44,863 nucleotides of DNA, taken from positions 1-44,863 of the forward strand of contig ONGR01000016.1 in assembly GCA_900317425.1 (NCBI GenBank). Reading direction: 5' to 3'. The stretch is from an uncultured Eubacteriales bacterium (lineage in GTDB: Bacteria > Bacillota > Clostridia > Oscillospirales > Oscillospiraceae). The stretch's first letter is position 1; each line of letters starts with the position of its first letter. The notes below the pieces were generated by a model. It was given only the letters and a program-made list of their open reading frames with translations. It made no database searches and was not told the DNA's origin. The position numbers and the translations under genes are program-made. Shown here piece after piece: positions 2,097 through 32,398 of the stretch.

Positions 2097-2174
2097 GTTT
2101 CGTGTCTGCGCCAGCCGGCGCCTGCGAAGTATGAGCAGCTGCGACGGCAAGTACCCTTGGGGTGCGGACACGAG
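2097..2174. repeat. 78-bp dispersed module A, copy 1
   Basis: This stretch recurs as a perfect reverse complement at 32399-32476. It contains the internal motif ACCCTTGGGGTG, which also occurs in the related tails at 14853-14921, 23071-23130 and 32571-32640. In both perfect copies it abuts the GGCAAA-type hairpin end of a MITE-like element. No coding function is visible. Confidence 0.8.
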
Positions 2175-2585
2175 GTCCTTTTGCCCGCGGCGGCAAAAGG
2201 ACCCAAAAACGCCGTTTAGAAACTACGTTTCTAAAGATTTCCTTGGCGCGTTCCGTACCGTGGCGGTTGTGGAAGTTTTCACCGCGCGGGACGGAACAAA
2301 CAGCAAAGGGCCCGAAATGTGGAATCGCCTCTGCTTCTTGGTTCGCTCATCCGCTGCGCTCGACTCTAAAACATAGGAGTACCCGCTCCTACCGTTTCAC
2401 CGGAGTGCGGCAGCGAAAAGAGGACGACAGGGGATCATATTTGCAGGAAAAACACAGTTTCTTCTGTGGTCGCGCGGCAAAAGGTTTCAACATCGGCAGC
2501 ACTCACGGCGCGCAAAGGAAGTTTTGAAACCATGGGTTTCAAATGGCGTCTTTGGTAACTTTCTTCGCTAATGAAGAAAGTTACC
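2174..2585 (-). mobile_element. MITE-like element with hairpin ends, copy R1 (412 bp)
   Basis: One end is the hairpin GGTCCTTTTGCC/GGCAAAAGGACC (2174-2203) and the other is GTAACTTTCTTC/GAAGAAAGTTAC (2555-2584). Inside each hairpin comes a related palindromic block (GCCGTTTAGAAACTACGTTTC at one end, GAAACCATGGGTTTC near the other), then TTCCTTGGCGCG-like sequence. The two ends therefore form imperfect terminal inverted repeats of about 75 bp. The middle carries CCCGAAATGTGGAA and TCATATTTG motifs shared with the other copies. It is in opposite orientation to the copies at 14443, 22759 and 31886. No open frame looks protein-coding. Confidence 0.7.
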
Positions 2586-2659
2586 CGCCGGAGGCATCCC
2601 CGCGCTCGCAAGCACGGAACCATCCCGCCGGAGACAACTTCACGTCCGGAAAAAGTAAA

Positions 2660-2692
2660 AAAACCGGGGAAGCGGACTTCCTCGGTTTTTCT
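2660..2692 (-). terminator. rho-independent terminator of the holB-ricT-HAD operon
   Basis: On the minus strand ACCGAGGAAG pairs with CTTCCCCGGT and is followed by TTTTTTTACTTTTT. It lies 16 bases past the phosphatase stop codon. Confidence 0.85.
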
Positions 2693-2707
2693 GTTCACGT
2701 ATGGGCC

Positions 2708-3553
2708 TCAATACAGCCTGTCCAGCTCCTCGATCATGGCGGCGATGGCCCCCTCCTGACAGTGGGGCAGGACGTGGACGCCGGGCACCTGACGGACGGA
2801 CTCGATGGCGTTGGCCGGGGCGAAGGGGATCCGGGCCCGGCGCAGCATGGGGATATCGTTGGCGTGGTCGCCGACGCAGTAGACGTGGCGCGGATCCGTC
2901 CCCAGCAGCTCCGTCAGCTTCTCCACCATGCCGCCCTTGTTGGCGCCGTGAGCCGTCAGCTCCAGGAGATTGGCGGCGGAGAGCACCACCTCGTAATCCG
3001 CGGCCCAGGGCTGGGCGGCGATGTAGTCCGTCAGCCGGCCCATGCGGGGCGGATTCTCCTCAAAGAGGATCTTGCTGACGGGAAAAGGCACCTGATCGAT
3101 ATCCTCCAGCACCACCGAGGGCAGATGGGTCAGGTGCAGGTGGTGGCGGGTGATCTCGTTGGGGTTCACGGCGTGGATGGAGTTGTCGTCGTGATAGATC
3201 TCCATGGTGACGCCGGGGACGGCGGCCAGGATCTCATGGAGATGGCCCAGAACGGTCTCCGGCAGAAAGGCGGTGTGGAGATAGCGCCCGGCGGCGAAAT
3301 CATAGATGGCCGCGCCGTTGAAGAGGATGGTGGGGCCGTTCATGGGGATGGTGGGGGCGATGGGGGCGAAGGCGGGCAGGGCCCGGCCGGTGGACACGGA
3401 GAACGTGCCGCCCTGGGCCATGAAGTACTCGATGGCCTGCCGGTTCTCCGGCGGGACGGGGGGCAGCTCCTCGCCCCGGAGGAGGGCGCCCTCGGTATAG
3501 GTGATGGTGTTGTCATAATCGCTGGCGATGAGAACGCCGTCAAACTTTCCCAT
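2708..3553 (-). CDS. HAD-superfamily phosphatase, Cof/subfamily IIB
   Basis: 281 residues with the four HAD motifs: nucleophile motif DYDNT (D12, D14), STGR at 54-57, conserved lysine K206 in ANKGG, and GDHAND at 228-233. The long cap between motifs II and III is typical of Cof-type sugar-phosphate or flavin phosphatases; the substrate cannot be read from sequence. The first motif reads DxDNT rather than the common DxDGT. The ATG is three bases after the ricT stop with GAGGGAT inside ricT, so the gene is probably coupled. A strong terminator follows. Confidence 0.88.
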   Translation of the reverse strand: MGKFDGVLIASDYDNTITYTEGALLRGEELPPVPPENRQAIEYFMAQGGTFSVSTGRALPAFAPIAPTIPMNGPTILFNGAAIYDFAAGRYLHTAFLPETVLGHLHEILAAVPGVTMEIYHDDNSIHAVNPNEITRHHLHLTHLPSVVLEDIDQVPFPVSKILFEENPPRMGRLTDYIAAQPWAADYEVVLSAANLLELTAHGANKGGMVEKLTELLGTDPRHVYCVGDHANDIPMLRRARIPFAPANAIESVRQVPGVHVLPHCQEGAIAAMIEELDRLY

Positions 3554-3556
3554 GGC

Positions 3557-4819
3557 TTATCCCTCGGTCTTGGGCTTGGCGCCGTGGTGGCGCCGTCCGC
3601 CCCGGTGGGTGCGCTTGCGGCGCACCTCCTCCCCGCCGGCGGCGGGCGCCGTTTTGGGGACGGGCTGCTCGGCCGCGGCGTGCTTCCGCCCGCCCCGGTG
3701 GTTGCGGCGGCGCTGGCCGTCGCCCTGGGGGGCGTTCTCCGTCTGGGGGACGTGCTTGGGCTCCGCCTTGGCGGGGAGCTTCACCTCCAGCCTGGGCTTG
3801 GCCTCGCCGCTCTTCCGTCCGCCCCGGTGGCCACGGCGGCGGCGGGACTTGCCGTCAGCCGGCTCGGCCGGGGTCTCGGCGGGGAGATCGGCCAGCAGGG
3901 GCCGGGGGGAGAAGTCGGAGATGATCTGGGGCACGGGGAACTCCTCCCGCTCCTCCACGTACCGCTCCGGCCGCTTGTCCGGAATCTGGATGCCATCCCG
4001 GCTGCCCTTGCCGTTGCGCAGGACGCAGACCTCGCAGTTGTGGTAGCAGCGGGGACCGTCGGTGCGGTCGTCCAGCCGGACGGTGACCTTCTCCTTCAGC
4101 ACGTTCACGTCGCTGACGTTGCCGGGCCCGTCGGGGGTCAGCACGAAGGAGTCGTTCTTGGGCAGACGCTTCAGGGCGTCCTCATAGGCGTCCTGCTCGT
4201 ATTTCAGGCAGCACATCAGCCGGCCGCAGGTGCCGGAGATCTTGGTGGGGTTCAGACTCAGATTCTGGGTCTTGGCCATCTTGATGGACACGGGCATGAA
4301 GTCGTCCATATACTCGGTGCAGCAGAAGGGCCGGCCGCAGATGCCCAGGCCGCCCAGCATCTTGGCCTCGTCCCGGACGCCGATCTGGCGCAGCTCGATC
4401 CGGGAGCGGAACACGCCGGCCAGATCCTTCACCAGCTCCCGGAAATCCACCCGGCCGTCGGCGGTGAAGAAGAAGAGGATCTTGCTGCCGTCGAAGCTGC
4501 ACTCCACCCGCACCAGCTTCATCTCCAGCTTGTGGGCGGCGATCTTCTTCTGGCAGATCTCGAAGGCCTCCTTCTCCCGGGTGCGGTTGTAGGCGTCGGT
4601 GTTGCGGTCGTTGGCGGTGGCCAGGCGCACCACCGGGCGCAGGGGCTGGATGACCCGGTCGTCGGCCACGCCGTGGTTGCCCTCGGTGCACTGGGCGAAC
4701 TCCAGGCCCTGGGCCGTCTCCACGATCACGTCGTCCCCGGCGGCCACCGTCAGGTCCCGGGGATCGAAATAATAGGTTTTTGTGCCGTTGCGAAAACGGA
4801 CGGAGATCACAGTTATCAT
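3557..4819 (-). CDS. ricT: PSP1-domain protein RicT (YaaT) with basic repeat tail
   Basis: The core, residues 1-285, has the RicT cysteines CGRPFCC (161-167), CGRLMCC (198-204) and C262/C265. In the family these take part in the Fe-S-containing RicA-RicF-RicT complex, which affects RNase Y maturation of mRNA and sporulation/biofilm control in Bacillus. The 130-residue C-terminal tail is Pro/Lys/Arg-rich with several HRGGRK-type blocks (GHRGGRK, NHRGGRK, THRGGRR) and is probably disordered and nucleic-acid-binding. I prefer the ATG at 4817-4819 (MITVISVRF). The upstream ATG at 4829-4831 sits directly against AAAGGA with no spacer, though it cannot be excluded. holB lies just upstream, a common arrangement in Firmicutes. 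Confidence 0.9.
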   Translation of the reverse strand: MITVISVRFRNGTKTYYFDPRDLTVAAGDDVIVETAQGLEFAQCTEGNHGVADDRVIQPLRPVVRLATANDRNTDAYNRTREKEAFEICQKKIAAHKLEMKLVRVECSFDGSKILFFFTADGRVDFRELVKDLAGVFRSRIELRQIGVRDEAKMLGGLGICGRPFCCTEYMDDFMPVSIKMAKTQNLSLNPTKISGTCGRLMCCLKYEQDAYEDALKRLPKNDSFVLTPDGPGNVSDVNVLKEKVTVRLDDRTDGPRCYHNCEVCVLRNGKGSRDGIQIPDKRPERYVEEREEFPVPQIISDFSPRPLLADLPAETPAEPADGKSRRRRGHRGGRKSGEAKPRLEVKLPAKAEPKHVPQTENAPQGDGQRRRNHRGGRKHAAAEQPVPKTAPAAGGEEVRRKRTHRGGRRHHGAKPKTEG

Positions 4820-4890
4820 GGATTGAAACATTCCTTTCGTCGGTCAGGAGGCACGTCGCCTCCGGGGAAAAATCGAAAAACGGGCGCCGG

Positions 4891-5748
4891 TCAGCCCAGG
4901 ATGGCCTCCCACTCGGCGGCCAGGGCGCCCAGGACGTGGCCCGGGCCCACGTTATAGCGGCACTCGGCGGCATAGCGGTGGAGGCAGTCGGTGAGCTTTT
5001 GCAGCCGGGACCGGGACAGACTCCGGCTCAAAGCGGCGGCCGCGTCGCCGGCGGGGCCGGGCAGCGGCGCCTTGCCGCACCCGAGCAGCAGCGCCTCGGC
5101 GGCGACGCGCCAGGCGTCCTCCAGCAGGGTCTGAACCTGCTCCCGCTTGAGGCGGCGGTTCTCCAGCGACACCAGCAGCTCCACCGCCGGCAGCACCTCG
5201 CCGCCGGCAAAGGCCCGGCACAGGGCCAGCGCCTGCTCCGACGCCGGGGCGTCCTCCTCCCCCCGCAGCTTCAGCTCCACGCAGCGGGAGCGGATGGTGG
5301 GCAGCAGGGCGGCGGCGCTGTCGGCGCAGAAAAGGAAGGCGGCGTAGGACGGCCCCTCCTCCACGATCTTCAGCAGCACGTTCTGGTCCCGCTCGTTGAG
5401 CTGGCCGCAGTCGGCGAAAATGCAGACCTTCCGGGCCCCCTCGTTGGGTCGGATATACACGTCCTGCCGCAGCTCCCGGACGGTGTCCACCGCCAGCTCT
5501 TTGCGCTCCGCGTCCTGCACCAGGCGCACGTCGGGGTGGATGCCCTCCGCCACCTTGCGGCAGGCGGCGCAGCGGAGACAGGGCCGGTCGCCCTCGCTCC
5601 GGCAGAGCATGGCCGCGGCGATATACCGGGCGGCGGAGAGCCGGTCCCCGGTGCCGGAGAGGATAATGGCGTGGGGCAGATTGCCGTGCTGCGCCAGCCG
5701 GCGCACGCGCCGGGCCAGCGGGTCCTTCTCCGACAGCAGCTGCGCCAT
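4891..5748 (-). CDS. holB: DNA polymerase III delta-prime subunit
   Basis: 285 residues, AAA+ clamp-loader subunit delta-prime. The N-terminal region has the zinc module C49-x7-C57-xx-C60-xx-C63, a degenerate P-loop (LSGTGDRLSAAR, lacking GKT, as expected for a subunit that does not hydrolyse ATP), and the SRC motif (TIRSRC). It acts in loading the beta clamp at the replication fork. ATG at 5746-5748 follows GGAGGAGGGG. It is the first gene of the holB-ricT-HAD operon, 59-71 bases upstream of ricT depending on the start used. Confidence 0.92.
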   Translation of the reverse strand: MAQLLSEKDPLARRVRRLAQHGNLPHAIILSGTGDRLSAARYIAAAMLCRSEGDRPCLRCAACRKVAEGIHPDVRLVQDAERKELAVDTVRELRQDVYIRPNEGARKVCIFADCGQLNERDQNVLLKIVEEGPSYAAFLFCADSAAALLPTIRSRCVELKLRGEEDAPASEQALALCRAFAGGEVLPAVELLVSLENRRLKREQVQTLLEDAWRVAAEALLLGCGKAPLPGPAGDAAAALSRSLSRSRLQKLTDCLHRYAAECRYNVGPGHVLGALAAEWEAILG

Positions 5749-5799
5749 ATCCGTCCCCTCCTCCTTCGGGCTGCAAATACCCAGTTTGAATTACAGTAT

Positions 5800-5829
5800 A
5801 GTATACCATAAAAATCGGATCGGCCGCAA
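5800..5829 (-). promoter_or_regulatory. promoter of holB operon
   Basis: Minus strand: TTGCGG (5824-5829), 18-base spacer, TATACT (5800-5805). A second overlapping TATACT lies at 5795-5800. The start of transcription is about 45-50 bases upstream of holB. Confidence 0.6.
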
Positions 5830-5929
5830 GGCTTGGACACCTGATTTGCGGAAAAATGTTTGCCGCGGCCGTTTCCCCGGAAAAAAGGCGAAATGAACCA
5901 AAAAAAGGGGTCGGATTTTCAAAATTGCC

Positions 5930-5958
5930 TTGCTTTTACCGGGAAAAATGACTATAAT
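5930..5958 (+). promoter_or_regulatory. promoter of ppdK
   Basis: TTGCTT (5930-5935), 17-base spacer, perfect TATAAT (5953-5958). The gene starts at 6008 after GGAGGGTAACAA, giving a leader of about 40 bases. Confidence 0.8.
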
Positions 5959-6007
5959 AAATTATTGTCAATCAATTTAATGCAAATCTTGATACGGAGG
6001 GTAACAA

Positions 6008-8893
<2,886 letters not shown>

Positions 8894-8910
8894 GGTTTCC
8901 CAATATACAG

Positions 8911-8956
8911 CAATGCCGCACCGATGGGTGCGGCATTGGTTTTTGCTGGTTTTTCG
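8911..8956 (+). terminator. ppdK terminator
   Basis: Hairpin CAATGCCGCACC-GATG-GGTGCGGCATTG (8911-8938) followed by two T-runs. Confidence 0.9.
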
Positions 8957-14415: not shown

Positions 14416-14442
14416 TGTGGGGGGTGTTCCGTGTCTCCGACG

Positions 14443-14852
14443 GGTAACTTTCTTCATCAGCGAAGAAAGTTACCAAAGACGCCGCTTGAAACCCATGGTT
14501 TCAAGACTTCCTTGGCGCGCCCAGCACCGTGGCGGTTGTGGAAGTTTCCACCACGCGTCACGGAGTAACAGCAAGAGGCCCGAAATGTGGAACTGTCTCT
14601 GCTTCTTGGCTCCGCTGCCGCGCTGCTCTGAAATGTAGGAGTACCATTTCCTACCGTTGAGAGCAGAGCGCAGCGTCAGCGATAGCGAAAAGAGAAGCAA
14701 AGAGAATCATATTTGAATCGAACACGTCAGCACCTCCGCGATCGTGCGGCAGTCAGAGCCGACAACATAAAAGGTATAGCGCGAGAGGGAAATCCCAAAA
14801 CCGTAGGTTTGGGCGGCGTTTTGGTTACTTTGCCGCTGTTGGCAAAGTAACC
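14443..14852 (+). mobile_element. MITE-like element with hairpin ends, copy R2 (410 bp)
   Basis: Left hairpin GGTAACTTTCTTC/GAAGAAAGTTACC (14443-14474), right hairpin GGTTACTTTGCC/GGCAAAGTAACC (14823-14852). Inside each lies CAAAGACGCCGCTTGAAACC or its related reverse complement, then CTTCCTTGGCGCG or CGCGAGAGGGAAAT, so the two ends are imperfect inverted repeats of about 75 bp. The centre (14628-14694) is repeated inverted at 22921-22987 with one mismatch. There is no credible protein frame. It fills most of the gap between the M23 gene and the HAD gene. Confidence 0.75.
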
Positions 14853-14980
14853 CCGCGCCAGCCTTTGTCCGCGAGGAACGAGCGGAAACAAGGGCAAGCA
14901 CCCTTGGGGTGTGCCCGGACGCAGAGGAACGGATTGCCACAGCCAGTGTGCGCACTGGCTTCGCAATGACTTCTATTGGG
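14853..14980. repeat. repeat tail attached to R2
   Basis: 14853-14921 (GCGCCAGCCTTTGTCCGCGA ... ACCCTTGGGGTGTG) recurs at 32571-32640 and, inverted and diverged, at 23071-23130. It is followed by ACGGATTGCCACAG...CTGGCTTCGCAATGAC, another inverted-repeat sequence of a type dispersed in gut clostridia. No gene seen. Confidence 0.6.
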
Positions 14981-22528: not shown

Positions 22529-22690
22529 GCCGAAGCGCCGCCAGCGCCAGCGACACCCCGTGAGCGCAGCGAACGGTTGGTGGAGCAAGCACCCTTGGGG
22601 TGTGGCGGATACAGCGAGGCGGTTTCGAGGCAGCGCCCCGCTTGCCACGACCAACGGGACGTGGGAAGCGGCTGGCGCAACGGTGGGATG
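22529..22690. repeat. copy c of the ~105-nt nested element, itself interrupted
   Basis: Starts GCCGAAGCGCCGCCAGCG, continues after an interruption as GGCGGATACAGCGAGGCGG and TTTCGAGGCAGCG, and ends near GACGTGGGAAGCGGCTGG. Uninterrupted relatives are at 29269-29375 and 32234-32335. The interruption (about 22553-22606) includes the ACCCTTGGGGTG motif of module A. Confidence 0.55.
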
Positions 22691-22758
22691 TTCCGCGCCT
22701 CCGGGCGCGGTAAGGGGGTTGTTCCGCGTCTTCGGACGCGGAGGGCGCCCTCCGGGGG

Positions 22759-23144
22759 CCTACTTTCTCCATCAGCGGAGAAAGTAGGCAAAGACGCCGC
22801 TTGAAACCCATGGTTTCAAGGCTTCCTTTGCGCGGGGTACGGGCTGTGCTTATTGAGAGCTTGTACCGCGCGATGGCGGAGGTGCCGATGTGTTCGATTC
22901 AAATATGATGCGTTTCCGGTCTCTTTTCGCTGTCGCTGACGCTGCGCTCTGCTCTCAACGGTAGGAAATGGTACTCCTACATTTCAGATTAGCGCACCAG
23001 CGGATGAAAAAGCGTCGCAGACTTCGCCGCTCGCAAGCGGCGAAAAAGCTTGATCATTTTTTGCCGCGGCGTGTACCCCAAGGGCACTTGCCTTTGTTTC
23101 TGCTTCTTCGTCGCAGACAAAGGCTGGCGTACGTGGCAAAAAAT
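22759..23144 (+). mobile_element. MITE-like element with hairpin ends, copy R3 (about 386 bp)
   Basis: Left hairpin CCTACTTTCTCC/GGAGAAAGTAGG (22759-22788) followed by CAAAGACGCCGCTTGAAACC. The centre 22921-22987 matches 14628-14694 inverted, 66 of 67 bases. At the right, ATTTTTTGCC (23056-23065) and GGCAAAAAAT (23135-23144) form an end hairpin whose loop has been replaced by an ACCCTTGGGG-type tail (23071-23130). It separates mutS from mutL, genes that are adjacent in many relatives. Confidence 0.6.
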
Positions 23145-23231: not shown

Positions 23232-25823
23232 CTATAGCTTCTGCTTCCATTCATACAGCAGGTTCAGCGCCTCCAGGGGACTGAGGGTGTCCACCTGGCA
23301 GCGGCGCAGGGCGTCGATGACCTCCCCCTCCGCCATGGCGGTGAAGGACACCTGGTCCTCCTCCGCCGCCGGCTCCGGCGCGGGGCGGCCCGCCTCGGCC
23401 TCCAGCTCCCCCAGGATCTTCCGGGCCCGGCTCACCACCTGCCCCGGCAGACCCGCCAGCTGGGCCACCTCGATGCCGTAGCTGCGGTCGGCCCCGCCGG
23501 GGATGATCTTCCGGAGGAAGATGATCTCCTCGCCCCGGGTGCGGACGGCGACGTTGTAGTTCTTCACGCCGGGGAGACTGTCCTCCAGGGCGGTCAGCTC
23601 GTGATAGTGTGTGGCGAACAGGGTCTTGGCCCCCAGCTTCCCGGCGCAGTATTCCAGCACCGCCCGGGCGATGGACATGCCGTCGAAGGTGGAGGTGCCC
23701 CGGCCGATCTCGTCGAGAATGAGAAGGCTGTTTGCCGTGGCGTGGTGCAGGATCTCGCTGACCTCCGTCATCTCCACCATGAAGGTGGACTGGCCGGCGC
23801 TCAGGTCGTCGCTGGCGCCGATGCGGGTGAAGATCCGGTCCACCACCCCCAGCCGGGCGGCCCGGGCCGGGACAAAGGAGCCGATCTGGGCCATCAGCGC
23901 GATCAGCGCCACCTGACGCATATAGGTGGATTTGCCCGCCATGTTGGGGCCGGTGATGATGGACACCCGGTCCTCGCTGCGGCCCATGTAGGTGTCGTTG
24001 GGCACGAACAGGGTGTCGGAGCGCATCTGCTCCACCACCGGGTGGCGGCCGTCATGGATCTCGATGACGCCGGACTCGTCCACGGCGGGGCAGCAGTAGT
24101 TGTTCTTCACCGCCACGGCCGCCAGGGAGCACAGCACGTCCACCTCCGCCACGGCGGCGGCGGTCTGCTGCACCCGGGCCACCTGTCCGGCCACGTCCAG
24201 GCGCAGCGCCGTGAACAGCTCATATTCCAGCGCGCTGAGTCGGTCGGCGGCGGAGAGGATGTCGCTCTCCAGATCCTTCAGCTCCTGGGTGACGTACCGC
24301 TCGCCGCTGACCAGCGTCTGCTTGCGGATATAGGTTTCCGGCACCTGATCCTTGAAGGAGTTGGAGACCTCGATATAGTAGCCGAAGACCTTGTTGTAGC
24401 CGATCTTCAGGGTGCGGATGCCGGTTTTCTCCTTCTCCTGGGCCTCCATTTTGGCGATGATGTCCTTGCCGCCGTGGAGGATGGAGCGGAGCCGGTCCAC
24501 CTCGGGATGGAAGCCCTCACGGATGAACTCCCCCTCCCGGACGGAGAAGGGCGGCTCGTCCACCAGGGTCTGGCCGATGAGGGCCGCCAGATCGTTGAGA
24601 TCGTCCAACTGCTCACAGAGCTCACGGAGCCGGCCCTTGGGGAAGGCGGCCAGCTGGGCCTTGACCTGGGGCAGCCGCTCCATGGCGGTGCGCAGGGACA
24701 CCAGATCCCGTCCTCCGGCGCTGCCGTAGACGATGCGGCCCATGAGCCGCTCCATGTCGGCGATGCCCTGGAGGGCCAGGATCAGCTCCTCGCGCTCCAT
24801 GGTGTGATCCACCAGGGCGGACACCGCGTCCAATCGCCGCTGGATGGCGGTGACGCTCAAAAGGGGCCGCTCCAGCCAGGAGCGGATCATCCGCCCGCCC
24901 ATGGCGGTCTTCGTCTTGTCCAGCACCCAGAGGAGCGAGCCCTTCTTCTCCTTGGAGCGGAGGGTCTCCGTCAGCTCCAGGTTGCGCCGGGCGGTGAGGT
25001 CCAGCTCCATGAACCGGCCCTGCTCGTAGTAGTCCAGCTGGTCGATGTGGCGCAGGTCCGTCTTCTGGGTCTCGTGGAGATAGCCCAGCAGGGCGCCCAG
25101 GGCCAGCACGGCGGCGTTGTTCCGGGGCAGGCGCGCCATGGCCTCGTCCCCGAACTGGGCCCGGACGGCCTTCTCCGCCGATTCCATCCGGAAGACGGAG
25201 GCGGGCAGCTTCTCCACGTGGCAGCGGAATTTATTCTCCAGCGTTGTATGGAGGGTCTCGTCAAAATAAGCGGTTTCGTTCAAGACGGCCTCGGCGGGGG
25301 AAAAACGGCCCAGCTCGTTGAGAAGATGGGTGAGCCGCTCCGGGCCGGAGAAGGCGGTGGCGTGGGTCTGGCCGGTGGAGACGTCGCAGGCGCACAGGGC
25401 GGCGTTGTCCTCGTCGAGGTAAATGCCGGCGCAGAAGTTGGACCGCCCCTCCTCCAGACACGCGCTGTCGATGACGGTGCCGGGGGTGACCACCCGGATG
25501 ATGTCCCGCTTCACCAGACCCTTGGCCGCGGCGGGATCCTCCGTCTGCTCGCAGATGGCCACCTTGTAGCCCTTGGCGATGAGCCGGGCGATGTAGGAGT
25601 CGGAGGCGTGGTAGGGGATGCCGCACATGGGGATCTTCTCGTCGAAGGACTTGGTCTTGTCCTTGTCCCGGGAGGTGAGGGTCAGGTCCAGCTCCCGGGA
25701 GGCGGTGCGGGCGTCGTCGCCGAACATCTCGTAAAAATCGCCCAGGCGGAAGAACAGGATGGAATCCTTGTTCTGCTTCTTGATCTCCAGATATTGGCGC
25801 ATCATGGGCGTCAGTTCAGACAT
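23232..25823 (-). CDS. mutS: DNA mismatch repair protein MutS
   Basis: 863 residues. The mismatch-reading motif FYE is at 30-32 (FFRLGDFYEMFGDDA). Connector, lever and clamp domains follow, then the ATPase with Walker A GPNMAGKSTYMRQ and Walker B ILDEIGRGTSTFDG, and a C-terminal HTH and tail. ATG 25821-25823 follows AGAGGAAG; a TTG six codons upstream is in frame but lacks a ribosome site. It is cotranscribed with miaB (48-base gap). Confidence 0.97.
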   Translation of the reverse strand: MSELTPMMRQYLEIKKQNKDSILFFRLGDFYEMFGDDARTASRELDLTLTSRDKDKTKSFDEKIPMCGIPYHASDSYIARLIAKGYKVAICEQTEDPAAAKGLVKRDIIRVVTPGTVIDSACLEEGRSNFCAGIYLDEDNAALCACDVSTGQTHATAFSGPERLTHLLNELGRFSPAEAVLNETAYFDETLHTTLENKFRCHVEKLPASVFRMESAEKAVRAQFGDEAMARLPRNNAAVLALGALLGYLHETQKTDLRHIDQLDYYEQGRFMELDLTARRNLELTETLRSKEKKGSLLWVLDKTKTAMGGRMIRSWLERPLLSVTAIQRRLDAVSALVDHTMEREELILALQGIADMERLMGRIVYGSAGGRDLVSLRTAMERLPQVKAQLAAFPKGRLRELCEQLDDLNDLAALIGQTLVDEPPFSVREGEFIREGFHPEVDRLRSILHGGKDIIAKMEAQEKEKTGIRTLKIGYNKVFGYYIEVSNSFKDQVPETYIRKQTLVSGERYVTQELKDLESDILSAADRLSALEYELFTALRLDVAGQVARVQQTAAAVAEVDVLCSLAAVAVKNNYCCPAVDESGVIEIHDGRHPVVEQMRSDTLFVPNDTYMGRSEDRVSIITGPNMAGKSTYMRQVALIALMAQIGSFVPARAARLGVVDRIFTRIGASDDLSAGQSTFMVEMTEVSEILHHATANSLLILDEIGRGTSTFDGMSIARAVLEYCAGKLGAKTLFATHYHELTALEDSLPGVKNYNVAVRTRGEEIIFLRKIIPGGADRSYGIEVAQLAGLPGQVVSRARKILGELEAEAGRPAPEPAAEEDQVSFTAMAEGEVIDALRRCQVDTLSPLEALNLLYEWKQKL

Positions 25824-25871
25824 AGTCAATCTTCCTCTCAAAAAGGGGTTGTGGGGTGTGCCTGCGGTGCA

Positions 25872-27284
25872 TCAAATGATCTCCCCAAACAGCGCCCAGG
25901 TGTTGCTGTCGGTGATCTTCGCCGTCTGGTACGTGCCCAGCAGGGCCTTGTCCCCGGTGAGATGCACCAGACGGCCCCCGGCGGTGCGGCCCTGGAGGGG
26001 CCAGCGGAGGTCGTCGGAGCTCTCGTCCACCAGGACGCGGACGGTCTCGCCCACGTATCCGGCGTGGATCTCCGCCGAGATGGCGTTTTGGGTGTCGCAG
26101 AGCTTATCGAACCACTTCTGCTTCTCGCTCCGGGGCACGGGGTCCTCCATTTTGGCGGCGGGGGTGCCGGGCCGGGGGGAGAAGATGAAGGTGAAGAGGG
26201 CGTCGAAGCGCACCTTTTCCACCAGCGCCACCGTCTCCATGGCCTCGGATTCCTGCTCGCCGGGGAAGCCGATGATCACGTCGGAGGTCAGCACCAGATC
26301 GGGCATGACGGTCCGGGCGTAGGTGATGAGATCCAGATATTTCGCCACGTCGTAGGGCCGGTTCATGGCCCGCAGCACCCGGTCGGAGCCGGACTGGACC
26401 GGCAGATGGAGCTGGTGGGCCACGTGGCGGCTTTTGGCCATGACGTCAAAGAGCTTGTAGCTTGCGTCCTTGGGCTGGGAGGACATGAAGCGGATCAGGT
26501 AATCGCCGGGGATCTTGTCGATCTCCGCCAGCAGATCGGCGAAGTCCCAGGGGGTGGGGAGACCCTTGCCGTAGGAGTTGACGTTCTGGCCCAGGAGGGT
26601 GATCTCCTTATAGCCGGCCTCCGCCAGCTCCCGGACCTCGGAGAGGATATGCTCCGGATCACGGCTCCGCTCCCGGCCCCGGACGTAGGGCACGATGCAG
26701 TAGGAGCAGAAGTTGTTGCAGCCGTACATGATGGAGACCCAGGCCCGGATCGAGCCCTCCCGCACCACCGGGATGCCCTCGGCGATTTGGCCCGGCTCGT
26801 CGGCCACGCTGAAGACACGGCGGCGGCGGCTGTAGACCTGGTGCAGCAGCTCCGGGAAGCGCCACAGGGCCTGGGGCCCGAACACCAGATCCACGTGGCG
26901 GTAGGACTTCCGCACCCGCTCGGCCACCTCCGGCCGCTGGGCCATGCAGCCGCACAGACAGATGATCTGGTCGGGGTTGGCCTTCTTGGTGTGGGTCAGG
27001 GCGCCCAGGTTGCCGTAGACGCGCTGCTCGGCGTGGTCCCGGATGGCGCAGGTGTTCAGCACCACGATGTCGGCCTCCTCGGCCTTGTCGGTGAAGGTGC
27101 AGCCCATGGCCTCCAGCATGCCCATGATGCGCTGGCTGTCCGCCACGTTCTGCTGGCAGCCGAAGGTGTCCACCAGCGCCAGGGGCTGTGCGGCACGCTG
27201 GGCGTGGATAGCCCGGATCTTCTCGGTAAATTCACGCTGACGGGACATCTGCTCCTCCGTCAGAACCACTTGCTTTCTCTCCAA
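25872..27284 (-). CDS. miaB: tRNA-i6A37 methylthiotransferase MiaB
   Basis: 470 residues, radical SAM enzyme that adds the methylthio group at position 2 of i6A37. N-terminal cluster cysteines C43, C79 and C113; radical SAM cluster C189-x3-C193-x2-C196 (CNNFCSYCIVPY); C-terminal TRAM domain. The start is TTG at 27282-27284, eight bases after GGGAGG. The next in-frame ATG is 12 codons on and would lose little. It is the first gene of the miaB-mutS unit. MiaA, which makes its substrate, is encoded downstream of mutL. Confidence 0.95.
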   Translation of the reverse strand: MERKQVVLTEEQMSRQREFTEKIRAIHAQRAAQPLALVDTFGCQQNVADSQRIMGMLEAMGCTFTDKAEEADIVVLNTCAIRDHAEQRVYGNLGALTHTKKANPDQIICLCGCMAQRPEVAERVRKSYRHVDLVFGPQALWRFPELLHQVYSRRRRVFSVADEPGQIAEGIPVVREGSIRAWVSIMYGCNNFCSYCIVPYVRGRERSRDPEHILSEVRELAEAGYKEITLLGQNVNSYGKGLPTPWDFADLLAEIDKIPGDYLIRFMSSQPKDASYKLFDVMAKSRHVAHQLHLPVQSGSDRVLRAMNRPYDVAKYLDLITYARTVMPDLVLTSDVIIGFPGEQESEAMETVALVEKVRFDALFTFIFSPRPGTPAAKMEDPVPRSEKQKWFDKLCDTQNAISAEIHAGYVGETVRVLVDESSDDLRWPLQGRTAGGRLVHLTGDKALLGTYQTAKITDSNTWALFGEII

Positions 27285-27344
27285 AATGAACCTCCCGGCG
27301 GGGCGACGGCGAAAATGCCGCTACTCCCCTACGATAATCGATTC

Positions 27345-27373
27345 ATTATACCACAAATCGCGGCCTGTGACAA
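27345..27373 (-). promoter_or_regulatory. promoter of miaB-mutS
   Basis: Minus strand: TTGTCA (27368-27373), 17-base spacer, perfect TATAAT (27345-27350). The leader of about 55 bases contains CGGC-ATTTTC-GCCG. Confidence 0.8.
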
Positions 27374-27403
27374 GGAAAGAGGGGGGAAACGGGGACAAAA
27401 AAA

Positions 27404-27435
27404 GAGGGCGGACGGCCCGTTGGCCGTCCGCCCTC
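27404..27435 (-). terminator. terminator left over from the short-chain dehydrogenase gene
   Basis: Perfect 14-bp stem GAGGGCGGACGGCC-CGTT-GGCCGTCCGCCCTC with TTTTTTTG after it on the minus strand, 17 bases past the stop of the dehydrogenase remnant. Confidence 0.9.
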
Positions 27436-27452
27436 CGGGGGCGGGGGAAGGA

Positions 27453-27560
27453 TCACATGGCGCACCAGCCGCCGTCCACCATCAGGATGTCGCCGCTGAT
27501 ATAGGCGGAGTCGTCGCTGGCCAGGAACAGGGCCGCGTTGGCGATGTCCCGGGGCGAAAA
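27453..27560 (-). pseudogene. C-terminal remnant of a short-chain dehydrogenase (FabG-like)
   Basis: The minus strand reads [20 protein letters not shown], then [14 protein letters not shown] and TGA at 27453-27455. [12 protein letters not shown] and the (T/S)G-x(3)-VDGG ending are the classical C-terminus of SDR/FabG-type oxidoreductases, which are about 245 residues long. Only about 35 codons remain. Upstream the frame breaks against the lspA promoter region, and the intact terminator survives. This is a deletion relic; the Rossmann domain and catalytic Ser-Tyr-Lys are gone. Confidence 0.8.
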
Positions 27561-27579
27561 AACCGGGGGACAATAGCCG

Positions 27580-27608
27580 TTGCAAATTCGCCCCGCTTGG
27601 GATATGAT
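27580..27608 (+). promoter_or_regulatory. promoter of lspA-rluD
   Basis: TTGCAA (27580-27585), 17-base spacer, TATGAT (27603-27608); the gene starts 28 bases later. Confidence 0.75.
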
Positions 27609-27636
27609 AAGAAAAACATGTTTTGAGGAGTATTTT

Positions 27637-28128
27637 ATGCTGTATGTGCTGATCGTATGCGCCCTGATCGCCGCGGATCAGGGGCTGAAATACTGGACGG
27701 TGACCCATCTGGCGGTGGGGCAGAGCACCCGCTTCCTGCCGGGGCTGATGCGCCTGACCCGGCTCCATAACGACGGCGCCGCCTGGTCCAGCTTCAGCGG
27801 CAGGACGGCCCTGCTCATCGCCGTCACCGCCGTGCTGCTCATCGGCGTCTTCACGCTGCTGGCGCGGAAGATCGTCCGCCATCCCCTGGGCGTGGCGGGC
27901 TGCCTGCTGATCCTGGGCGGCGGCATCGGCAACATCATCGACCGCATCGCCCACGGCTACGTGGTGGATATGTTCGACCTGGAGCTGTTCACCTACCCCA
28001 TCTTCAATCTGGCGGACTGCTTCGTGGTGGTGGGCGCCATTCTGGGCGGTATCTATTACCTGTTCCTCTACGACAAGACCGACGGGAAGGAGAAACGCCA
28101 TGACAAGGACGCTGACGGCGGCAAGTGA
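27637..28128 (+). CDS. lspA: lipoprotein signal peptidase
   Basis: 163 residues, four membrane helices. It cleaves the signal peptide of prolipoproteins after lipid attachment. The catalytic aspartates are D102 (GNIIDRI) and D127 (FNLADCF). ATG 27637 follows GAGGAG with six bases spacing; an earlier in-frame ATG would start inside the promoter. The last 29 bases overlap rluD. Confidence 0.95.
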
Positions 28129-29011
28129 ACACGCCGGGGAGCGGCTGGACAGCTTTCTGGCCGCCGGGCTGGCCGTCTCCCGCAGCGCCGCCGCCCGGCT
28201 CTGTGAGGAGGGCCGCGTCACGGTTGGCGGCAAGGCCCTGGCCAAGAACTATCGGCTGGTAGGCGGCGAAGAACTGACGGTGGAGATCCCCGAGCCGGAG
28301 GACACGGCCGTGGAGGCCCAGGACATCCCGCTGGACGTGGTGTATGAGGACGAGGACGTGATCGTGGTGAACAAGCCGGTGGGCATGGTGGTCCACCCCG
28401 CCCCGGGCCACAGGGACGGCACCCTGGTCAACGCCCTGCTCCACCACTGCGGGGAGAGCCTCTCCGGCATCGGCGGGGAGAAGCGGCCCGGCATCGTCCA
28501 CCGCATCGACCGGGATACCAGCGGCCTCATCATCGCCGCCAAGAACGACGCCGCCCATCTGGGCCTCTCCGCCCAGCTGGCGGACCACACCCTGGCCCGG
28601 ACGTATGAATGCCTGGTGGTGGGCAATCTCCGCCAGGACAGGGGCACCGTGGACGCCCCCATCGGCCGCCACCCCACGGACCGGAAGAAGATGGCGGTGG
28701 TGGCGAACGGCCGCCGGGCCGTGACCCACTGGGAGGTCATCGCCCGGTATCCCGGCGTTACCCACGTGCGCTGCCGTCTGGAGACGGGCCGGACCCATCA
28801 GATCCGGGTCCACATGGCCCACATCGGCCACCCCATCCTGGGGGACACGGTGTACGGGGCGAAAAAGCCGGTGCCCGGTCTCACGGGCCAGTGCCTCCAT
28901 GCGGTGGGCCTGCGGTTCCTCCATCCCCGCACCGGGGAGGCGGTGGAGCTCCGGTGCGAGCTGCCGGAGGAGTTCCAAGCCTACCTCCGGAAGCTGGAAA
29001 ACCGGGGATAG
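28100..29011 (+). CDS. rluD: RluD-type 23S rRNA pseudouridine synthase
   Basis: 303 residues. An N-terminal S4 RNA-binding domain (residues about 14-60) precedes the RluA-family catalytic domain with HRIDRDTSG at 134-142 (catalytic D137) and RTHQIRVHMAHIGHPI. The family makes pseudouridines in helix 69 of 23S rRNA; which uridines are modified here cannot be proven from sequence. The ATG lies inside lspA after GGAAGGAG, 29 bases of overlap, the usual lspA-rluD pairing in Firmicutes. Confidence 0.92.
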   Translation: MTRTLTAASEHAGERLDSFLAAGLAVSRSAAARLCEEGRVTVGGKALAKNYRLVGGEELTVEIPEPEDTAVEAQDIPLDVVYEDEDVIVVNKPVGMVVHPAPGHRDGTLVNALLHHCGESLSGIGGEKRPGIVHRIDRDTSGLIIAAKNDAAHLGLSAQLADHTLARTYECLVVGNLRQDRGTVDAPIGRHPTDRKKMAVVANGRRAVTHWEVIARYPGVTHVRCRLETGRTHQIRVHMAHIGHPILGDTVYGAKKPVPGLTGQCLHAVGLRFLHPRTGEAVELRCELPEEFQAYLRKLENRG

Positions 29012-29044
29012 GCCGGAATTTTTCGGAATTCGGGAAGAAAAGTG

Positions 29045-29073
29045 TTGACAATCGCGGCAACGTAGTGTACTAT
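29045..29073 (+). promoter_or_regulatory. tRNA-Val promoter
   Basis: Perfect TTGACA (29045-29050), 17-base spacer, TACTAT (29068-29073), with the tRNA starting 13 bases later. Confidence 0.8.
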
Positions 29074-29086
29074 ATTACCGTTGTCC

Positions 29087-29162
29087 GCGCGGTTAGCTCA
29101 GCTGGTAGAGCACATGCTTGACGTGCATGGGGTCACAGGTTCGAGTCCTGTACCGCGCACCA
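29087..29162 (+). tRNA. tRNA-Val (anticodon GAC)
   Basis: 76 nt with encoded CCA. Acceptor GCGCGGT/ACCGCGC, D-arm GCTC...GAGC, anticodon stem CATGC/GCATG around TTGACGT (anticodon GAC), T-arm ACAGG-TTCGAGT-CCTGT. All stems pair. Confidence 0.97.
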
Positions 29163-29199
29163 AAAATCGGCGTTGGCCTTTAGGCCGACGCCGATTTTT
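29163..29199 (+). terminator. tRNA-Val terminator
   Basis: AAAATCGGCG...CGCCGATTTTTT hairpin directly after the CCA end. Confidence 0.92.
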
Positions 29200-29242
29200 T
29201 ATGTACAGAGCACGACGCGAGCCTGCGGCTCTCTTTGTGCAT

Positions 29243-29403
29243 CAGGCATCGCTTGACGGCATGGGGTCTGCCGCCGAAGCGCCGCCAGCGGCGGATGAAG
29301 CGAGGCGGCAGAAAGGAAGCGGCCCGCCTGTCGCGCCCCATAAAGGGCGGGAGAGGCGGCTGCCGCGACGTGGACACAGGTTCGAGTCCTGTACCCGCCC
29401 ACC
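29243..29403 (+). pseudogene. degenerate second tRNA-Val copy split by an insertion
   Basis: 29251-29268 (GCTTGACG-GCATGGGGTC) matches the anticodon arm and variable loop of tRNA-Val with one base missing. 29376-29402 (ACAGGTTCGAGTCCTGTACCCGCCCACC) matches its T-arm and acceptor end with two changes. Between them lies the ~107-nt element at 29269-29375. The 5' half is not recognisable. It cannot be functional. An alternative reading is an attachment-site scar from an element that integrated at the tRNA 3' end. Confidence 0.6.
29269..29375 (+). mobile_element. ~107-nt nested element, copy a
   Basis: Begins TGCCGCCGAAGCGCCGCCAG, continues GGCGGATGAAGCGAGGCGG, and ends GCCGCGACGTGGAC. Related copies are at 32234-32335 (inside MITE-like element R4) and 22529-22690 (interrupted). 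Here it sits exactly between the variable loop and T-arm of the broken tRNA copy. GC-rich, with internal inverted repeats and no open frame. Confidence 0.55.
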
Positions 29404-29423
29404 GGCTCCCCGGAATGACCCCC

Positions 29424-30212
29424 TCACCCACCCCGGCACAGGGCCGCCAGCAGCTCCGGCCGCCGCCGGGGCACGGCCCCCTTCTCCACCTGCTCCATCA
29501 CCGCCGATATCTGACGGGCGTCCAGGGCCAGCAGCCGATCGCGCACCCGGTCCCGGCTGCGGATCTGTCCGTCCACCCGGAGATACGGGGAGGGATCGTC
29601 GCAGGCGTCTGCCATGATCTCCACCAGTTCCTCCAGAAGAGCGGGATCGGCGCCCTCACAGGCGGAAACATTCTTTTCTATGATCTGACGCGGCGCCATG
29701 GCCGACAAGGCGGCGCCTGCGTCCGGGTGTGAGAGAATAGACTCGTTCTTTCTGATCTCTTTCTTTCTCTCCTCAGTCTTTCTTGGTGTCGGTTTTTGCG
29801 ATTCCGGCGTGACGGTTTTCGGCGTACCGGAGGCCCCTTTTTTGACAGGCTTGACCCCATATTTCGCCATACCCTCCGGCGGACGGACGCAGATCCGGTC
29901 GGGCCGGCCCAGACCCTGCCGGGCCCGGCGGATGAGGCCGCAGCCCTCCAGCGCCCGGAGCAGGGCGGTGGCCTTGCCGGCGGAGCAGTGCAGCGTGCGG
30001 CAGATCTCGGCGTTGGTGAAGTAGAGGAAGATCTCCCCCGCCCCGTCCCGCCAGCCGTTGGCCGCCGAGAGGCTGATCCGGTTGAGCAGCAAGGTATAGA
30101 GGAGCTTGGCGTCGCCGGAGAGGGCGGCGTATTTTTCGTTTTCGATGATGGCCCGGGGCAGGCGGAAAAAGGTAAATTCCCCGGCGTCCCACCAGTCCGT
30201 TTTCCCGGCCAT
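29424..30212 (-). CDS. replication initiator RepA_N-domain protein (orphan)
   Basis: 262 residues. The N-terminal RepA_N winged-helix domain (residues about 8-100) has FFRLPRAIIENEKYAALSGD, AKLLYTLLLNRISLS and GLGRPDRICV. A Lys/Thr-rich linker follows, and a helical C-terminal domain (LEELVEIMADACDD...PYLRVDGQIRSRDRVRDRLLAL) of the type seen in clostridial replication initiators. Such proteins start replication of plasmids and circularised mobile elements. No relaxase, integrase or partition gene is nearby, so this looks like a domesticated or leftover copy. ATG 30210-30212 follows GGGGGTGATCCC. It lies behind a tRNA and its broken copy, a classic integration hot spot. Confidence 0.85.
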   Translation of the reverse strand: MAGKTDWWDAGEFTFFRLPRAIIENEKYAALSGDAKLLYTLLLNRISLSAANGWRDGAGEIFLYFTNAEICRTLHCSAGKATALLRALEGCGLIRRARQGLGRPDRICVRPPEGMAKYGVKPVKKGASGTPKTVTPESQKPTPRKTEERKKEIRKNESILSHPDAGAALSAMAPRQIIEKNVSACEGADPALLEELVEIMADACDDPSPYLRVDGQIRSRDRVRDRLLALDARQISAVMEQVEKGAVPRRRPELLAALCRGG

Positions 30213-30333
30213 GGGATCACCCCCTTTACTATGGGGGCGCACGGCCCGGTTTGTTGTCCGGCCTGTTGCCCGGCCCGGGGCAACTCCGGAAAATATTGGG
30301 GCGGCGGGCCCCTTTTTGTTACCGAACTGACAC

Positions 30334-30362
30334 TTGTATTCCCGGAAGGGCCGTGCTATGAT
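30334..30362 (+). promoter_or_regulatory. promoter of the 46-residue gene
   Basis: TTGTAT (30334-30339), 17-base spacer, TATGAT (30357-30362), 50 bases before the start codon. Confidence 0.65.
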
Positions 30363-30412
30363 GCACCCGAAGAGGGAGAAAACCGCCGTACGGGAGCAAA
30401 GGAGGTCGAACC

Positions 30413-30553
30413 ATGAGAGATCGAAAAGGTGAAATCGCCGCGGCGCTGGCGCTGCTGACCGCCGCCTCCGCCCTGTGCCTGAAGCTGATGAAGGCGGCCG
30501 GGGAATGGCTGGACCGGGAGCAGAAGAAGCTGGACGAGACGGAGGACGAATGA
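30413..30553 (+). CDS. 46-residue single-helix membrane peptide
   Basis: ATG 30413 follows GGAGG with six bases spacing. The protein has a charged start (MRDRKGE), one hydrophobic segment (about 8-26, IAAALALLTAASALCLKL) and a charged tail ending in EQKKLDETEDE. It has its own promoter and a strong terminator, so it is a complete transcription unit. No family recognised. The topology, one helix with an acidic/basic tail, resembles small membrane regulators or type-I-toxin-like peptides, but nothing in the sequence proves a role. Confidence 0.7.
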   Translation: MRDRKGEIAAALALLTAASALCLKLMKAAGEWLDREQKKLDETEDE

Positions 30554-30578
30554 TCGCCCGCCGGTGAACCGCAAATAG

Positions 30579-30612
30579 AAACAGGAGAGGCGTCTGCCTC
30601 TCCTGTTTTTTT
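30579..30612. terminator. shared bidirectional terminator
   Basis: Perfect 13-bp stem AAACAGGAGAGGC-GTCT-GCCTCTCCTGTTT with T7 on the plus side. It ends both the 46-residue gene (+) and the aldo/keto reductase gene (-). Confidence 0.9.
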
Positions 30613-30636
30613 GCGCTGTTTGCGCCGCCGCGTCCC

Positions 30637-31767
30637 TTACTTCTCCCCCTTCTCGAACTCCGCGGCCACGTCCTGCAGCAGCTGCCGGATGGGCAGGTGC
30701 TGGGGGCAGATGGCCTCGCACTGGCCGCACTGGACGCAGTCAGAGGCCTTGCCGGCGTTCCGGGTCATCACCTCGTAGTAGAAGTCGGCGTTCCAGTCCC
30801 GGAACCGCTTCTTGTTGTTCATGCAGGTGAACAGCCGGGGGATGCGGATGTTCATGGGACAGCCGTCGGTGCAGTAGTGGCAGGCGGTGCAAGGGATGAG
30901 ATCCATGCTGCGGAAGATCCGGCAGACCCGGTCCACCGCCGCCCGCTCATCGTCGTTGAGGGGCTTGAAATCCCGCATGAAGCCCACGTTGTCGGTGAGC
31001 TGGGCCATGTCGCTCATGCCGGAGAGCACCATGCACATCTGGGGGAAGCCGGCGGCGAAGCGGATGGCGTAGCTGGCGTTGCTGCCGCCGTGGAGGGCGT
31101 CGAAGACCGCCTGGGCCGCGTCGGGCAGATTCACCAGATTGCCGCCCTTCACCGGCTCCATCACGATCACCGGCTTGCCGAACTTCTCGCACACCTCATA
31201 GACCTTCCGGCTCTCCACCGACAGATCCTCATAGTCGGCGTAGTTGAACTGGATCTGCACCACCTCGATCTGGGGGTACTCGGTGAGGATCTGCTCGAGA
31301 ACGGTGGCCTTGTCGTGGAAGGAGATGCCCACGTGGCGGATGAGGCCCTGCTCCTTCAGGGCGAAGGCGGTCTCATAGGCCCGGCAGCTCTTGAACTTGG
31401 GGAAGTTGCCGCTGCCCTGGGCGTGCATCAGGTAGAAGTCGAAGTAGTCCACGCCGCAGGCGGCCAGCTGGCTGCGGAAGAAGGGCTCGATATCCGCCTC
31501 GGTCTGGAAATAGGAGTCGGTGAGCTTGTCGGTGAGGATGAATTTGTCCCGGGGATAGCGGCTGGTCAGCGCCTCCCGGATGGCCAGCTCGCTCTTGCCG
31601 CTGATGTAGCCGTGGGCGGTGTCGAAATAGTTGAAGCCGGCGTCCAGGAAGGCGTCCACCATCTCCTTGGTCTGCCGGATGTCCACCTCTTTTTCGATCA
31701 TGGGCAGGCGCATCATGCCGAAGCCGAAGTTGCCGTGGATCTCCGGAAAGAATTTGTTGGTCATCAT
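30637..31767 (-). CDS. aldo/keto reductase with C-terminal 2[4Fe-4S] domain
   Basis: 376 residues. The N-terminal AKR barrel has the tetrad D49, Y54, K81 and H115. The C-terminal part carries ferredoxin-type clusters, CTACHYCTDGCP and CVQCGQCEAICP. This fused family is common in anaerobes and probably moves electrons between NAD(P)H-linked substrates and ferredoxin-like carriers; the substrate is unknown. ATG 31765-31767 follows GGAGGAAACGCCT; a second ATG follows immediately. Single-gene unit. Confidence 0.92.
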   Translation of the reverse strand: MMTNKFFPEIHGNFGFGMMRLPMIEKEVDIRQTKEMVDAFLDAGFNYFDTAHGYISGKSELAIREALTSRYPRDKFILTDKLTDSYFQTEADIEPFFRSQLAACGVDYFDFYLMHAQGSGNFPKFKSCRAYETAFALKEQGLIRHVGISFHDKATVLEQILTEYPQIEVVQIQFNYADYEDLSVESRKVYEVCEKFGKPVIVMEPVKGGNLVNLPDAAQAVFDALHGGSNASYAIRFAAGFPQMCMVLSGMSDMAQLTDNVGFMRDFKPLNDDERAAVDRVCRIFRSMDLIPCTACHYCTDGCPMNIRIPRLFTCMNNKKRFRDWNADFYYEVMTRNAGKASDCVQCGQCEAICPQHLPIRQLLQDVAAEFEKGEK

Positions 31768-31798
31768 AGGCGTTTCCTCCGTTCGTTGATTCCCCTTT

Positions 31799-31828
31799 AT
31801 TGTAAAAGAGCGGAGGGGGAGCAGTCAA
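31799..31828 (-). promoter_or_regulatory. promoter of the aldo/keto reductase gene
   Basis: Minus strand: TTGACT (31823-31828), 18-base spacer, TACAAT (31799-31804). Confidence 0.65.
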
Positions 31829-31885
31829 CAGGAAAATATGGAGACGGGGATTCCGCGCTCCGGCGCGGGAAACGTGTCTCCGACG

Positions 31886-32398
31886 GGTGACTTTCTTCAC
31901 CAGCGAAGAAAGTCACCAAAGACGCCGCTTGAAACCCATGGTTTCAAGGCTTCCTTCGCGCGCTATACCCCCCTGTTATCGGCTGCCTATACCGCACGAT
32001 CACGGGAGTACGCCGATAATCGTTTCAAATATGATCCTTTTCTGTTCTCTTTTTGCTGCCGCACTCTGGCGCAACGGTAGAAGCCATTGCCCCAACATTT
32101 TTGGGCAGAGCGCAGCGGATGAGCGAACCGAGGAGCAGAGACCATTCCACATTTCGGGCCCCTTGCTGTCTCTTACGCTGCGCGTGGTAAAAACTTCCAC
32201 GACCGCCAAGGTGCGGAGCGCGCCGAGGAAATCGCCGAAGCGCCGCCTGTGGCGGATGAAGCGAGGCGGTTTCGAGGAAGTGTCCCGGTTTTCACGACCA
32301 ATGGGAGCGAAAACCGGTTGACACGACGGTGTTTGGTCTTAGAAACGTAGTTTCTAAACGGCGCTTTCGGTCACCTTTGCCGCCGTGGGCAAGGGTGA
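31886..32398 (+). mobile_element. MITE-like element with hairpin ends, copy R4 (513 bp, with nested insert)
   Basis: Left hairpin GGTGACTTTCTTC/GAAGAAAGTCACC (31886-31917), right hairpin GGTCACCTTTGCC/GGCAAGGGTGAC (about 32369-32398). It shares CAAAGACGCCGCTTGAAACC, CCACATTTCGGG and the TTAGAAACGTAGTTTCTAA palindrome with R1. Removing the nested ~105-nt element leaves about 410 bp, the length of R1 and R2. Confidence 0.7.
32234..32335 (+). mobile_element. ~105-nt nested element, copy b
   Basis: GCCGAAGCGCCGCCTGTGGC, GGATGAAGCGAGGCGG, then a GGTTTTCACGACC...GGGAGCGAAAACC dyad. It interrupts R4 between GCGCGCCGAGGAAAT and TTAGAAACG, which are adjacent in R1. Same family as 29269-29375. Confidence 0.55.

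What the first reader, a model, noticed from the sequence alone, without database searches (positions are those of the whole stretch)
2174..32398. A family of ~400-bp MITE-like elements with hairpin ends fills four intergenic gaps
Copies at 2174-2585 (412 bp), 14443-14852 (410 bp), 22759-23144 (386 bp) and 31886-32398 (513 bp, about 410 without a nested insert) share one plan: a 30-nt hairpin at each end, then a GCCGCTTGAAACCCATGGTT-type palindromic block, then CTTCCTTGGCGCG, then a unique centre. The ends are imperfect inverted repeats of about 75 bp and there is no protein frame. The density, four in 45 kb, suggests an active or recently active non-autonomous element that I cannot name.
Basis: seen in the sequence. 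Interest (0 to 1): 0.7.

Follow-up and report, generated by a model that had tools for sequence, protein, structure and literature searches.

The report
Mobile hairpin elements with knotted ends
Short, gene-free DNA elements scattered between genes of some gut bacteria and their viruses have ends whose sequences change in step so that they can still fold into the same knot, which suggests that the fold, more than the sequence, is what lets them move or act.

Summary
Three of the four window copies have two related, inverted ends; the third (22756 to about 23007) keeps only one. The genome has 22 such ends, on four of its 39 contigs as far as listed. Ends occur in 22 of 32 genomes of the genus, 37 of 300 of the family, 9 of 295 of an order sample, and in phage contigs. 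Copies in this genome are diverged (median identity 75%), so "recently active" is not supported here; two copies in one phage do have near-identical end modules.

The new finding is structural. Each end has a hairpin whose loop can pair with five bases just beyond an A-rich spacer: an H-type pseudoknot. In 65 of 72 distinct ends all five pairs form (re-paired controls: mean 31, maximum 41), with several compensating versions. Wobble pairs fit almost only on the strand read outward, at both ends, so the folded molecule is probably an outward RNA or the outward single DNA strand.

No target duplication, no transposase between ends, and no tracking by Y1 or IS110 transposases were found. Best reading: a non-autonomous, MITE-like element of a new structural type, moved in trans by an unknown enzyme.

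The parts
2171..2587 (.). Copy 1: complete element; end modules 2171-2250 (+) and 2508-2587 (-)
   Evidence: R1 matches 85.0 and 94.9 bits
2107..2166 (.). Module M1 in the loop of copy 1's outer stem (CGTGTC 2101-2106 / GACACG 2167-2172)
   Evidence: sequence, by eye; repeat family D5, 67% to its reference
14441..14855 (.). Copy 2: complete element; end modules 14441-14520 (+) and 14779-14855 (-)
   Evidence: R1 matches 95.8 and 76.4 bits
14851..14917 (.). Module M1 copy beside copy 2
   Evidence: repeat family D5
22756..23007 (.). Copy 3: incomplete; one end module 22756-22835 (+) plus inner part; second end not found
   Evidence: R1 95.3 bits, one end only; BLAST 22762-23007
31884..32402 (.). 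Copy 4: element with a nested insert; end modules 31884-31963 (+) and 32323-32402 (-)
   Evidence: R1 95.0 and 59.6 bits
32233..32335 (.). Module M2 nested in copy 4 (limits approximate)
   Evidence: repeat family D7, 32233-32302; rest by eye
32407..32466 (.). Module M1 in the loop of copy 4's outer stem (CGTGTC 32401-32406 / GACACG 32467-32472)
   Evidence: sequence, by eye
32567..32633 (.). Another M1 copy beyond copy 4
   Evidence: repeat family D5, 94%
14443..14484 (-). Example pseudoknot (copy 2, left end), read outward: CGGCG, UCUUU spacer, hairpin GGUAACUUUCUUC-GCUGAU-GAAGAAAGUUACC; CGGCG pairs with CGCUG formed by the last stem base and the loop

Best explanation
A family of non-autonomous, MITE-like mobile elements of Oscillospiraceae and their phages. 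Each end carries an H-type pseudoknot: a hairpin of about 9-15 bp whose loop pairs with five bases just beyond a spacer that is U-rich when read outward, with a second hairpin further inward. Shown by computation: multi-copy dispersal, presence and absence at the same site, compensating changes in the three helices, wobble almost only on the outward strand, two copies with near-identical end modules in one phage. Inferred: an enzyme supplied in trans binds the folded outward strand of each end (single-stranded DNA, or an RNA running out of the element) and moves the element; insertion may favour the apex of older hairpins of the same kind. The enzyme is unknown.
For: Copies: 22 ends in the genome, 22 of 32 genus genomes, 37 of 300 family genomes, IMG/VR contigs. 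Presence/absence: mutS-mutL gap and phage gaps. Pseudoknot: 65 of 72 combinations fully paired against control mean 31.3, maximum 41 in 2000 shuffles; 96.6% of 238 cells paired, 0 of 500 shuffles reach it, best slid control 81.2%; whole structure 97.7% of 1231 cells, 21 of 26 pairs with both-side changes. Strand: allowing G.U on the outward strand raises full pairing from 15 to 65 of 72; allowing it on the inward strand leaves 15. Spacer and hairpin arm vary together. Two copies in phage contig L162 with near-identical end modules and a centre that reads inverted. About 15 half-hairpins cut near the apex, 14 followed by another outer stem (by eye).
Against: No target duplication (longest direct match 6.00, control 5.84). 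No transposase found; Y1_Tnp in 9 of 22 carriers and 6 of 10 non-carriers, IS110 over cut-off in 3 of 22 and 2 of 10; only these two families were tested. Within the pseudoknot helix alone, the number of pairs with both-side changes (3) is reached by 66 of 500 shuffles and the number of pair types by 19, and related sequences can beat shuffles without structure, as the tool warns. Copies in this genome are diverged. The boundary is uncertain. The pseudoknot may serve an RNA function unrelated to movement. BLAST shows self-inverted matches in own-genome copies mostly at single hairpins, not along the whole element.
Confidence: 0.55

Rival explanations
1. The ends are orientation-independent RNA elements: a transcript leaving the element carries the pseudoknot, which stabilises the RNA or affects termination or processing. 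Spread is by rare recombination or by phages, and the fold is kept by RNA function.
For: Wobble almost only on the outward strand; spacer U-rich outward and matched to the hairpin's purine arm (the parallel with RNA triplexes is recalled); a predicted inner helix also has wobble outward, though only one-sided changes.
Against: Both ends carry it, one of them on the strand opposite to any given transcript; a solo outer hairpin without the partner strand occurs (G020); no Rfam match for the element over a gathering score; no transcript data.
Confidence: 0.28
2. No transposase at all: palindromes spread and exchange by replication slippage, hairpin-tip breakage and repair between copies.
For: Half-hairpins cut near the apex, ends of different type on one element, inverted centre in the phage pair.
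Against: Does not easily explain new sites such as mutS-mutL or two gene gaps in one phage.
Confidence: 0.1
3. REPIN-like element moved by a RAYT/Y1 transposase.
For: Paired inverted hairpin units; single-strand fold.
Against: No Y1_Tnp match in the own genome or in element-rich G020 and G027; present in 9 of 22 carriers and in 6 of 10 genomes without an end at the threshold used.
Confidence: 0.05
4. Chance similarity of unrelated hairpins.
For: Hairpins are common between genes.
Against: E-values to 9e-24 and 22 ends in one genome; in the class sample only the own genome matches, 1 of 291.
Confidence: 0.01

Closest known systems
MITEs of prokaryotes (review PMC10969869, passages seen)
   Same: small, no protein frame found, inverted ends, between genes, multi-copy
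   Different: no target duplication seen, no parent transposase found, ends fold as pseudoknots rather than being plain inverted repeats
REPINs / REP with RAYT (recalled; listings)
   Same: paired inverted hairpins, non-autonomous
   Different: about 410 bp, pseudoknotted, no Y1 transposase match in the own genome
IS200/IS605 ends (recalled)
   Same: ends recognised as folded single strands, with pairing between hairpin region and a nearby short strand
   Different: there the two ends differ and act on one strand; here both ends are inverted relatives and the outward strand appears to be the folded one
H-type pseudoknots with U-rich major-groove loops, as in telomerase RNA (recalled)
   Same: order of helices and loops, U-rich loop against an A-rich strand
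   Different: here at both ends of a repeated DNA element

Membership tests
MITE | terminal inverted repeats | tested here: met
   inverted pairs of end modules in 38 copies; inverted similarity of the outer flanks is carried mainly by two phage copies
MITE | short and without transposase gene | tested here: met
   374-599 bp among pairs within the 750-bp limit; longer copies of 724 and 927 bp in G240 not tested for genes; no Pfam match for 3 ORFs in the window
MITE | multi-copy, dispersed between genes | tested here: met
   mutS-mutL and phage gaps
MITE | target site duplication | tested here: inconclusive
   none detected in 40 elements, but the boundary is uncertain
MITE | shares ends with an autonomous element | tested here: inconclusive
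   none seen in the loci read; no systematic search beyond 750 bp
REPIN/RAYT | Y1 transposase in the same genome | tested here: not met
   own genome 0 matches; 15 of 32 genus genomes, not tracking the element
IS110 type | IS110 transposase in the same genome | tested here: not met
   own genome 0; over cut-off in 5 of 32
Known RNA family (Rfam 15) | match over the family's gathering score | tested here: not met
   window: only a tRNA; four loci at E up to 1: nothing over its cut-off, weak RefA5 matches (26 and 24 bits, cut-off 91) at two L128 ends

The most novel reading that the evidence does not exclude
A new class of mobile element defined by fold rather than sequence: both ends form a pseudoknot with a pyrimidine-rich strand in the hairpin's major groove, recognised as a single strand by an unknown enzyme, with insertion aimed at the apex of other hairpins so that elements nest, and with a centre that flips between copies.
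Probability: 0.25. Interest if true: 0.85.

Novelty: new variant of a known kind. Interest (0 to 1): 0.6.

Why it matters
If the pseudoknot is needed for movement, an element's ends are read by shape, which would explain how strongly diverged copies stay in one family and gives a clear mutational test. It also gives a search model for repeats that fill intergenic gaps, and probably break assemblies, in Oscillospiraceae, common gut bacteria (abundance recalled).

Tried and rejected
Y1/RAYT partner and IS110 partner: distributions do not match. Target duplications: none. Rfam: none for the element over a cut-off. Autonomous version: none seen, but pairing was limited to 750 bp; two ends 3.4 kb apart in L162 belong to two separate copies. 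Inward strand as the folded one: allowing G.T there does not raise full pairing. Mirror or direct match of spacer and hairpin arm: both slightly exceed controls (mirror exact 27 of 65, control mean 15.5, maximum 26; direct 33, mean 22.5, maximum 31), so a triplex is inference only. Few G.U cells in the inward alignment (one cell) first suggested a purely DNA-level palindrome; the outward alignment has wobble, so this was dropped. Contamination as a cause of the contig clustering: composition of sampled stretches does not separate the contigs, not excluded. Outer-flank inverted similarity (mean 9.95, control 7.23, maximum 7.87) rests mainly on the two phage copies (54 and 44 bases); without them the mean is about 7.9. 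One search parsed none of 30 loci because my pattern was wrong; one search repeated it corrected. Papers: searches were seen as listings with abstract starts; PMC10969869 as passages. I saw no description of this element in those listings; nothing wider is claimed.

Full report
Observation. The four window copies were read directly and by BLAST against the own genome: 17 matches, on contigs C20, C23, C31 and C39 only. A covariance model R1 of the 80-nt end was built from 24 ends. It finds both ends of copies 1, 2 and 4 and one end of copy 3. The own genome holds 22 ends; the 19 that the capped list shows lie on those four contigs, and one search finds 22, plus one weak match, in stretches of the same contigs.

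Range. At the thresholds used, ends occur in 22 of 32 genomes of the genus (8 of 14 of high quality), in 37 of 300 of the family, 18 of 106 genera (at most 15 scored a genome), in 9 of 295 of the order sample, five outside the family, and in 1 of 291 of the class sample, the own genome. A pattern scan of GTDB 220, which asks for the CTTGAAACC-like version only, gave 8 stretches, labelled Oscillospiraceae or Ruminococcaceae. IMG/VR contigs carry it too.

Anatomy. From outside in: an outer stem (CTCCGRCGG or a short CG-rich hairpin), a hairpin of about 9-15 bp (hp1), an A-rich spacer, CGCC or equivalent, a second palindrome, CTTCC, then the centre. Longer copies exist in G240 (724 and 927 bp) and phage L164. 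The two ends of one element are often of different type.

Pseudoknot. The loop of hp1 is complementary to the five bases after the spacer. Of 111 hits 101 were unique; 6 had no parsable hairpin; of 95 parsed, 7 weak or odd matches were dropped, leaving 88 ends and 72 distinct combinations. Allowing G.U on the outward strand, 65 of 72 form all five pairs, six form four and one forms two; re-paired controls, with the same choice of offset, average 31.3 full pairings, maximum 41 in 2000 shuffles. Watson-Crick only: 15 against 4.7, maximum 10. G.T on the inward strand: 15 against 9.0, maximum 16. On an outward alignment of 48 ends picked by me for diversity, the helix has 96.6% of 238 cells paired; no shuffle of 500 reaches this, and the best slid control is 81.2%; but its three pairs with both-side changes are reached by 66 of 500 shuffles and its number of pair types by 19. 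The whole structure has 97.7% of 1231 cells paired and 21 of 26 pairs with changes on both sides (0 of 500), while its number of pair types is reached by 122 of 500. At one pair 35 of 48 ends have G.U outward, which is A.C inward. Compensating versions include CAGTC/GACTG, CGGCC/GGCCG, CAGCT/AGCTG, TAGCG/CGCCA and GAGCG/CGCCC, the last two with the A.C (outward G.U) position. Further off, by eye: CCGCG/CGCGG in G121 of the family and TGTGC/GCACA at one end in G414 outside the family; other ends there pair over four bases only.

Spacer and hairpin. They vary together: of 21 distinct arm-spacer combinations with A3 then G in the arm, 19 have A3 then G in the spacer. Read outward the spacer is U-rich and runs parallel to the purine arm, as a major-groove third strand would; this is inference.

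Movement. The mutS-mutL gap was parsed in 22 of 30 fetched loci: 17 are 9-44 nt; G023 holds a complete element (528 nt), the own genome the incomplete copy 3 among other modules (727 nt), G020 a solo outer hairpin (129 nt), two hold other DNA (201 and 242 nt). Four loci had no parsable mutS end and four no recognised mutL start. The same end type lies on opposite sides in own and G023 (by eye). Phage contig L162 has two copies in inverted arrangement; BLAST between them gives 95.8% over 261 and 90.9% over 254 bases, their end modules have equal R1 scores, and by eye the centre of one is the reverse complement of the other. The terminase-portal gap is short in L170, L171 and L176 and the gap after the portal region is short in L170 and L174 (by eye); L171 has element ends elsewhere, one pair of them beyond its portal region. 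Ten elements of the own genome: 43 of 45 pairs comparable, median 75.0% identity.

Nesting. A pattern for outer stem plus hp1 5' arm gave 92 instances in 29 sources, 39 without the 3' arm. By eye three are duplicates, about 15 are real half-hairpins and the rest chance or unclear; 14 of the 15 are followed within 60 nt by another outer stem. Module M1 sits in the outer-stem loop of copies 1 and 4 (by eye). Insertion into hairpin apices is a reading of this, not shown.

What was not found. No target duplication. No transposase between ends, without a systematic search beyond 750 bp. Y1_Tnp: 15 of 32 genomes, none in the own genome; 9 of 22 carriers and 6 of 10 non-carriers. IS110: over cut-off in 5 of 32, none in the own genome. 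No Rfam match for the element over a cut-off. One partial match in the phage records.

Judgement. MITE-like in habit; membership in the MITE family stays open because duplication and parent enzyme are missing. The pseudoknotted ends, kept by compensation and with the outward strand as the likely folded one at both ends, are the new feature.

Noticed in passing
own genome contigs C20, C23, C31, C39: All ends listed for this genome lie on four of 39 contigs; regional clustering or a binning effect. Composition of sampled stretches does not separate them.
   Followed up: partly
window 2107-2166, 14851-14917, 32407-32466, 32567-32633, about 23070-23140: A second repeat module (CAGCCTTTGTCCGCG...CACCCTTGGGGTG type) in or beside outer stems; also in phage L162.
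   Followed up: partly
window 22586-22655, 29272-29341, 32233-32302: A third repeat module (GCCGAAGCGCCGCC type, family D7), nested in copy 4 and seen by eye in G001 and G030 loci.
   Followed up: no
L162 3205-3846 and 6316-6962: Centre of the element reads inverted between two copies in one phage contig.
   Followed up: partly
window 41334-41830: Direct repeats: 160 nt at 98% (41411, 41671) and 68 nt at 100% (41334, 41573).
   Followed up: no
G073, G213: Several end matches sit at contig ends, so the repeat probably breaks assemblies.
   Followed up: no
L130 203-442: T-box leader just below its gathering score (90.5 against 93) near an element.
   Followed up: no
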